From Candidatus Methanoplasma glyptotermitis (GTDB lineage Archaea; Thermoplasmatota; Thermoplasmata; Methanomassiliicoccales; Methanomethylophilaceae), in contig JAIRYF010000043.1 of assembly GCA_031267895.1 (NCBI GenBank), forward strand, positions 1-51,063: 51,063 bases of DNA, given 5' to 3'. The first letter of the stretch is position 1; the number at the start of each line of letters is the position of its first letter. A model generated the notes under the pieces. It was not told where the DNA came from. It was given only the letters and a program-made list of their open reading frames with translations, and did not search any database. Made by a program: the position numbers and the translations under genes. Shown piece by piece: positions 15,536 through 16,189 of this stretch.

Positions 15536-15889
15536 CTTTATATTATTAGTCTAAAGTCGGGACGACCGTGTATGGTAACAGCCTGTTTTCCCTTCAAAAA
15601 GATGTGCGGAGAGGAGCGGGCATCCGCGATAAGGCTGTTTCTGCGACCGTACTGGTATGCTATACCCGCGCATAAGCCGATCTTAGAAGGAGCAGAGGGG
15701 ACTTTCGGGCACTGCCGTAAGGATTTACAAGCACAGTTCGGATGCGGATGTGTTTTATACGTATTTGCGGATGCGCCCACGGGCACATTGAAGCAATACA
15801 GTGCCAAACACAGTAAGGAGAAAAACTCATGAATCTTAAATCCCCGGAAGGAATCCTTTCTTCCGTCAAAACATCCGCCCGCCCATACA

Positions 15890-15900
15890 GGGGGGGGGGG
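15890..15900. repeat. Homopolymeric G11 tract followed by GGGGGAATT-CTA-AATTCCCCC hairpin
   Basis: Direct read of 15890-15916. Confidence 0.95.
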
Positions 15901-16189
15901 AATTCTAAATTCCCCCGGCCGTCTGAACTTAACAGTTTTATTTGCCGCTGCTCTGTTTCTCGCAGCGGCATTCTTTGTGACATACACGGAATCGAACGAA
16001 TCCGATGCCGATATCATTGACAGCGGTACCTGCGGAAGCAGCCTGACTTGGACTCTCACGAACGAGGGTGTTCTCACGGTGTCCGGTTCCGGTGCCATGG
16101 ATAATTACACGTATGATGCGGGTGCAGTAGATACGCCGTGGTGGGGCGAGATACAGAACATAGTGCGCGTTGAGATAGAATCGGGCGTG

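What the first reader, a model, noticed from the sequence alone, without database searches (positions are those of the whole stretch)
15829..16020. G11 tract puts a surface-protein signal peptide out of frame: candidate phase-variation switch in an archaeon
ATG 15829 has a good Shine-Dalgarno (AAGGAG), but with 11 Gs (15890-15900) translation stops after 63 aa. With 10 Gs (or 7/13) it joins in frame to ILNSPGRLNLTVLFAAALFLAAAFFVTYTES, a signal-peptide-like segment, and on into the LRR repeats. No alternative start exists in the downstream frame before the hydrophobic segment. The tract abuts a perfect GGGGGAATT-CTA-AATTCCCCC hairpin that could promote slippage. Slipped-strand switching at poly-G is established in bacteria; here it is inferred, and an assembly or homopolymer error is the main alternative.
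Basis: partly seen in the sequence, partly recalled or inferred. Interest (0 to 1): 0.85.

Follow-up and report, generated by a model that had tools for sequence, protein, structure and literature searches.

The report
Poly-G switch family in a methanogen
A run of 11 Gs throws a surface-protein gene of a methane-producing archaeon out of frame, and it is one of about 94 such runs in that genome (about 40 of them at the same place in one surface-protein family, others inside DNA-restriction genes), so this archaeon probably flips genes on and off at random as some host-associated bacteria do, which I could not find reported for archaea.

Summary
The own genome has about 94 G tracts of 10 or more; about 2 are expected by chance. 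Run lengths are bimodal: almost none of 7-9, many of 10-13. About 40 tracts sit at one place in a paralogous BspA-like LRR surface family: Shine-Dalgarno, ATG, ~20-codon leader, G10-13, signal peptide, LRR protein. Of 37 scorable copies 33 are out of frame and 4 in frame, yet the downstream frame is under purifying selection (pN/pS 0.18). Two copies with identical 135-bp flanks differ only as G11 and G10. Other tracts interrupt HsdS, a ResIII-type gene, an adenine methyltransferase and two binding proteins. A restriction helicase has G11, G11, G13 and (AG)18 at one site in four congeneric species. In a sister species the tract lies in a leader ORF whose stop overlaps the surface gene's start only in the correct frame (11 of 11 loci). 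The host encodes PylS and lacks detectable MutS. Best explanation: a genome-wide slipped-strand phase-variation system in a Methanomassiliicoccales-type archaeon. Switching itself is inferred; no reads or strains were available.

The parts
15815..15820 (+). Shine-Dalgarno-like AAGGAG
   Evidence: Read directly; AGGAG at the same place in most paralogs
15829..15889 (+). Leader ORF start (ATG) and ~20-codon leader MNLKSPEGILSSVKTSARPY
   Evidence: leader conserved in paralogs, pN/pS 0.55 over 12 codons
15890..15900 (+). G11 tract; 10 or 13 would be in frame, 11 is OFF
15896..15916 (+). Perfect hairpin GGGGGAATT-CTA-AATTCCCCC overlapping the 3' end of the tract
   Evidence: stems of 5-9 bp at the same place across the family
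15902..18007 (+). Downstream ORF (701 codons if TAG is read): signal-peptide-like segment, BspA-type LRR, CarboxypepD_reg, InlB B-repeat-like domain, C-terminal hydrophobic segment
15923..15985 (+). Signal-peptide-like hydrophobic segment LNLTVLFAAALFLAAAFFVTY (approximate limits)
   Evidence: Translation; invariant or near-invariant columns in 12 paralogs
16316..16318 (+). In-frame TAG inside the LRR region (pyrrolysine codon or nonsense mutation)
   Evidence: one TAG inside; pylS present in genome with a pylB-like gene beside it
17897..17968 (+). C-terminal hydrophobic segment followed by KHRKDDEEEDGN, likely membrane anchor (approximate limits)
   Evidence: Translation; no topology tool was run

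Best explanation
The tract is a slipped-strand contingency locus in a pyrrolysine-decoding methanogenic archaeon, one of a genome-wide set. Gain or loss of a G during replication changes the reading frame between a short leader and the signal peptide of a surface LRR protein. In the assembled state (G11) translation ends after 63 codons and no surface protein is made (OFF). G10 or G13 would give ON. Because the in-frame lengths (10, 13) lie at the edges of the actual length distribution (mostly 11-12), most family members are OFF and a cell would show only a few of about 40. Shown here: the tract, the frames, the family, over-representation, selection on the hidden frame, length differences between near-identical copies, cross-species conservation of a tract site, absence of detectable MutS. 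Inferred: slippage in cells, surface display, and a role in dealing with hosts, phages or other microbes.
For: 94 G10+ tracts against ~2 expected; A/T runs of 10+ only 2 in the same 415 kb. G/C run lengths bimodal (7:4, 8:1, 9:3, 10:15, 11:34, 12:29, 13:5). About 40 tracts at one position of one LRR surface family. 33 OFF, 4 ON of 37; 15 of 16 complete OFF ORFs have no internal stop, though one is only 55 codons; pN/pS 0.18 in the downstream frame, 0.83 and 2.28 in control frames. Identical 135-bp flanks with G11 and G10 (L089, L101); 15 of 21 pairs with 95%+ identical flanks differ in tract length. Tracts in a D12 adenine methyltransferase, HsdS, a ResIII-type ORF and two Peripla_BP_2 proteins. 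Restriction helicase: G11 ON (G008), G11 ON (G003), G13 OFF (G002), (AG)18 OFF (G014), the only (AG)9+ in G014. G014 leader coupling 11 of 11. A one-contig relative also carries tracts. No MutS.
Against: No read data, no second strain of the species and no expression data were available. OFF counts are not independent because paralogs share sequence. Some family tracts lie at contig ends, so a few may be counted twice. Some 30 tracts have no long ORF directly downstream in my scan. The window gene also carries a TAG, so it may be a worn copy even if the family is active.
Confidence: 0.88

Rival explanations
1. Assembly or homopolymer sequencing error: the true tract is 10 G and the gene is always in frame.
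For: The genome is a 72-contig draft, the G11 length comes from a consensus, and the platform is unknown.
Against: Error cannot create the tracts themselves or place about 40 of them at one site, nor give a bimodal length distribution with few runs of 7-9. Required lengths differ between paralogs (n mod 3 = 1 or 2). Tracts occur at an orthologous site in other assemblies, one of them with a dinucleotide repeat instead, and in a one-contig genome. Individual lengths may still be off by one.
Confidence: 0.05
2. A decayed pseudogene family frozen out of frame.
For: Most copies are OFF (33 of 37); the window copy has an in-frame TAG.
Against: pN/pS 0.18 in the hidden frame; 15 of 16 complete OFF ORFs without stops, up to 829 codons; 4 ON copies; several tract-free copies keep an in-frame start (L167, L170, L171).
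Confidence: 0.04
3. Transcriptional slippage or programmed ribosomal frameshifting at the G tract lets OFF-length genes be made anyway.
For: Long homopolymer runs can be slippery for polymerases and ribosomes (background knowledge); a G/C stem follows the tract in the family.
Against: No single fixed shift would serve all members, since lengths 10-13 need 0, +1 or -1. G014 uses leader coupling and its helicase uses (AG)18. It could coexist as leakage.
Confidence: 0.08
4. The tract belongs to a dispersed mobile repeat that spread by chance.
For: The leader-tract-signal-peptide block is near identical among some paralogs.
Against: Unrelated genes and unrelated leaders in sister species carry tracts at comparable functional sites.
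Confidence: 0.02

Closest known systems
[quoted passage not shown]
   Same: BspA-like LRR surface family, HsdS and type III R-M genes controlled by simple repeats; for a number of genes the majority state is OFF
   Different: Bacterium; mostly dinucleotide repeats; eight BspA-like genes affected; population variants were shown from reads, which I could not do
Campylobacter poly-G/C phasomes (PMC6321876)
   Same: Tens of poly-G tracts per genome, mostly in ORFs with G on the coding strand; 5-81 phase-variable genes per strain
   Different: Bacterium; tracts peak at 9-10 rather than 11-12; no single large LRR family (background knowledge)
Phase-variable HsdS and methyltransferase genes (phasevarions) of bacteria
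   Same: Poly-G between the two specificity domains of HsdS and near the start of an adenine methyltransferase
   Different: Archaeal; no methylome evidence
Translationally coupled gene pairs (a class used in PMC3711429)
   Same: Stop-start overlap ATGA between leader and main gene
   Different: In G014 the coupling is made conditional on the length of a G tract inside the leader

Membership tests
SSR-mediated phase-variable (contingency) locus | Long simple repeat in or near the 5' end of an ORF so that length sets the frame | tested here: met
SSR-mediated phase-variable (contingency) locus | Repeat far above chance | tested here: met
   94 against ~2; A/T 10+ runs rare
SSR-mediated phase-variable (contingency) locus | Length variation between homologous loci | tested here: met
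   Paralogs G10-G13 with near-identical flanks; helicase orthologs G11, G11, G13, (AG)18
SSR-mediated phase-variable (contingency) locus | Silent phase still under selection as protein | tested here: met
   pN/pS 0.18
SSR-mediated phase-variable (contingency) locus | Reversible switching seen within a clonal population | not testable with these tools
   No reads or cultures
BspA-type LRR surface protein | LRR_5 (PF13306) repeats | tested here: met
   E 7.6e-32 for the window part
BspA-type LRR surface protein | Export and surface display | not testable with these tools
   Hydrophobic N-terminal and C-terminal segments only; no topology tool was run
Pyrrolysine-decoding Methanomassiliicoccales | pylS and pyl biosynthesis genes | tested here: met
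   PylS over cut-off; a pylB-like gene beside it, identified from sequence only; best PDB matches are pyrrolysyl-tRNA synthetases
Pyrrolysine-decoding Methanomassiliicoccales | Placement by marker genes or a named genome | not tested
   The one named-genome scan failed; genus name not established

The most novel reading that the evidence does not exclude
A methanogenic archaeon runs an antigenic-variation-like surface display: about 40 paralogous LRR proteins, each with a frame switch whose in-frame lengths (10, 13) sit off the preferred length (11-12), so each cell shows only a few, together with phase-variable restriction-modification genes. Its sister species evolved a different, translation-coupled version of the same switch.
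Probability: 0.5. Interest if true: 0.93.

Novelty: new variant of a known kind. Interest (0 to 1): 0.86.

Why it matters
Simple-repeat phase variation is a textbook bacterial strategy. Ten literature searches found no archaeal case, and a 2025 review names archaea among the places still to look (PMC11868660). If it holds, these methanogens hedge their surface and their restriction systems at random, which bears on how they meet hosts, viruses and partner microbes. It also makes gene calls in these genomes wrong in a predictable way: starts are placed at or after the signal peptide because the true start is out of frame.

Tried and rejected
L089 and L101 were checked for being two alleles of one locus and are distinct loci. 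The hairpin as a required part was rejected, because no comparable stem is evident (by eye) beside tracts in the G014 family and restriction genes. Pseudogene decay and assembly error were considered and found poor as general explanations. The (AG)20 repeat in G010 has no clear gene.

Full report
Observation. The finding is in the sequence as described. ATG 15829 follows AAGGAG, the G11 tract is at 15890-15900, and the ATG frame ends after 63 codons. Ten Gs would join it to ILNSPGRLNLTVLFAAALFLAAAFFVTYTES and to the LRR region. No ATG, GTG or TTG precedes the hydrophobic segment in the downstream frame. The hairpin is a perfect 9-bp stem. Pfam finds LRR_5 (BspA type), CarboxypepD_reg and an InlB B-repeat-like domain in the downstream part. 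Neighbours are ordinary: adenylosuccinate synthetase, a UbiD-family protein, a Glu/Gln-tRNA synthetase family protein, an iron-dependent repressor.

The tract is one of many. The own genome (1.717 Mb, 72 contigs, 97.85% complete) has 94 runs of G10 or more counting both strands. About 2 are expected from base composition or a first-order Markov model. In 415 kb fetched around the tracts, G/C runs fall off normally (6:32, 7:4, 8:1, 9:3) and then peak again (10:15, 11:34, 12:29, 13:5). A/T runs of 10 or more number 2. The fetched stretches were chosen for their tracts, but the whole-genome G8 count (411) fits almost no runs of exactly 8 or 9 anywhere.

The family. About 40 tracts share one anatomy: AGGAG, ATG, a leader of 16-23 codons such as MNMKSSKGIISSPGVTHG, G10-G13, then NYNFPSRLNITVLFAAALFLAAAFFVTYSEPNESDA and an LRR protein of up to about 900 residues. 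In 37 copies with a scorable leader, 33 are OFF and 4 ON (binomial against one third, p = 0.0026; the copies are not independent). The ON copies are L084+9207 (G11), L101-61 (G10), L121+5259 (G11) and L180-1878 (G13). The in-frame length is 10 or 13 for most, while 39 of 42 tracts are 11 or 12. Of 16 OFF copies with a complete downstream ORF, 15 have no internal stop, though one of these is only 55 codons long; the exception is the window's TAG. pN/pS over the 36-codon signal-peptide segment is 0.18 in the hidden frame against 0.83 and 2.28 in the other frames. The silent part is therefore maintained as protein.

Mutability. Two loci, L089+3018 and L101-61, are different places in the genome, yet share 84 bases before and 51 bases after the tract exactly and differ as G11 and G10. 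Of 21 pairs with flanks at least 95% identical, 15 differ in tract length. Some paralogs have lost the tract and regained a fixed frame: L167 has an interrupted tract in frame, while in L170 and L171 a G-rich stretch now reads like a Shine-Dalgarno before an internal ATG. One copy, L168, has a shortened tract and appears out of frame.

Other genes. Tracts interrupt a D12 adenine methyltransferase (L067), an HsdS between its two specificity domains (L069), a ResIII-type ORF (L178), two Peripla_BP_2 binding proteins (L075, L098) and further LRR or CBM_X2 proteins (L104, L117, L186). Restriction-modification and surface genes are the classes best known as phase-variable in bacteria.

Sister species. 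Three congeners have 64, 37 and 23 tracts of G10 or more; most others in the order have few. In G014 an LRR surface family carries G10-G14 in a short leader ORF. In 11 of 11 loci exactly one tract-length class lets the leader end in a stop overlapping the start of the surface gene (ATGA or GTGA); the other frames end elsewhere. Translational coupling is inferred from this overlap. In G003, G005 and G007 tracts sit next to signal peptides of other surface-type proteins. A restriction helicase (Mrr_cat_2, ResIII, Helicase_C) has G11 in G008 (ON), G11 in G003 (ON), G13 in G002 (OFF) and (AG)18 in G014 (OFF) soon after the Walker A motif. That (AG) repeat is the only one of 9 or more units in the G014 genome. 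A site that stays repeat-bearing while the repeat type changes is hard to explain except by selection for switching.

Host and repair. PylS is present with a pylB-like gene beside it, and its best PDB matches are pyrrolysyl-tRNA synthetases. The host is therefore a pyrrolysine-decoding archaeon, most likely of Methanomassiliicoccales; that placement is inference and the genus name was not established. The window TAG may be read as pyrrolysine. No MutS was found in a search that rings in 11 of 14 control genomes; MutL was not tested. Archaeal replicative polymerases slip in vitro on templates with a hairpin and direct repeats (PMC4134008).

Mechanism and its limits. Best supported is slipped-strand phase variation. 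The bias of lengths towards 11-12 when 10 or 13 is ON would keep most copies silent and a few displayed; this step is inference. The hairpin may help slippage in this family (stems of 5-9 bp), but no comparable stem is evident by eye beside the G014 and restriction-gene tracts, so it is probably not needed. No reads, strains or expression data could be examined.

Literature. Ten full-text searches found no report of simple-repeat phase variation in archaea. The 99-genome survey of homopolymeric tracts (PMC2831843) reports mainly short poly-A/T enrichment, and the passages read mention no such poly-G system in its 18 archaea. The closest analogue is Candidatus Mycoplasma girerdii (PMC5476646). 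Most subscription papers and all preprints are missing from the library, so absence is not proof.

Noticed in passing
window 16316-16318; L178:15-1508:-: In-frame TAG codons inside a tract-bearing LRR gene and inside the ResIII-type ORF of a genome with pylS; none of the other tract-bearing family ORFs examined contains or ends in TAG.
   Followed up: partly
L301:2172-2208 (G014 C73): (AG)18 replaces the poly-G of sister species at the same region of a restriction helicase, and is the only long AG repeat in that genome.
   Followed up: yes
L187, L189, L191-L193, L195, L196, L198-L201 (G014): Leader ORF with a G tract whose stop overlaps the start of an LRR surface gene in one frame only: a candidate length-gated translational coupling switch.
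   Followed up: yes
L101:3709-3729: A palindrome of G10 and C10 around one base, between genes; role unknown.
   Followed up: no
L063, L176, L181, L077+4603, L066, L083 and other non-family loci: About 30 G tracts lie outside obvious long ORFs, some near gene starts or terminator-like stems; some may set promoter spacing.
   Followed up: no
P0008, P0012, P0015: Database gene calls for out-of-frame copies start inside or after the signal peptide, so these proteins are annotated without their N-terminus.
   Followed up: partly
L300:1074-1113 (G010 C158): (AG)20 repeat with no clear long reading frame on either side.
   Followed up: partly
G041 and G059: Two genomes of another family in the order also have 15 and 10 G10+ tracts; not examined.
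   Followed up: no
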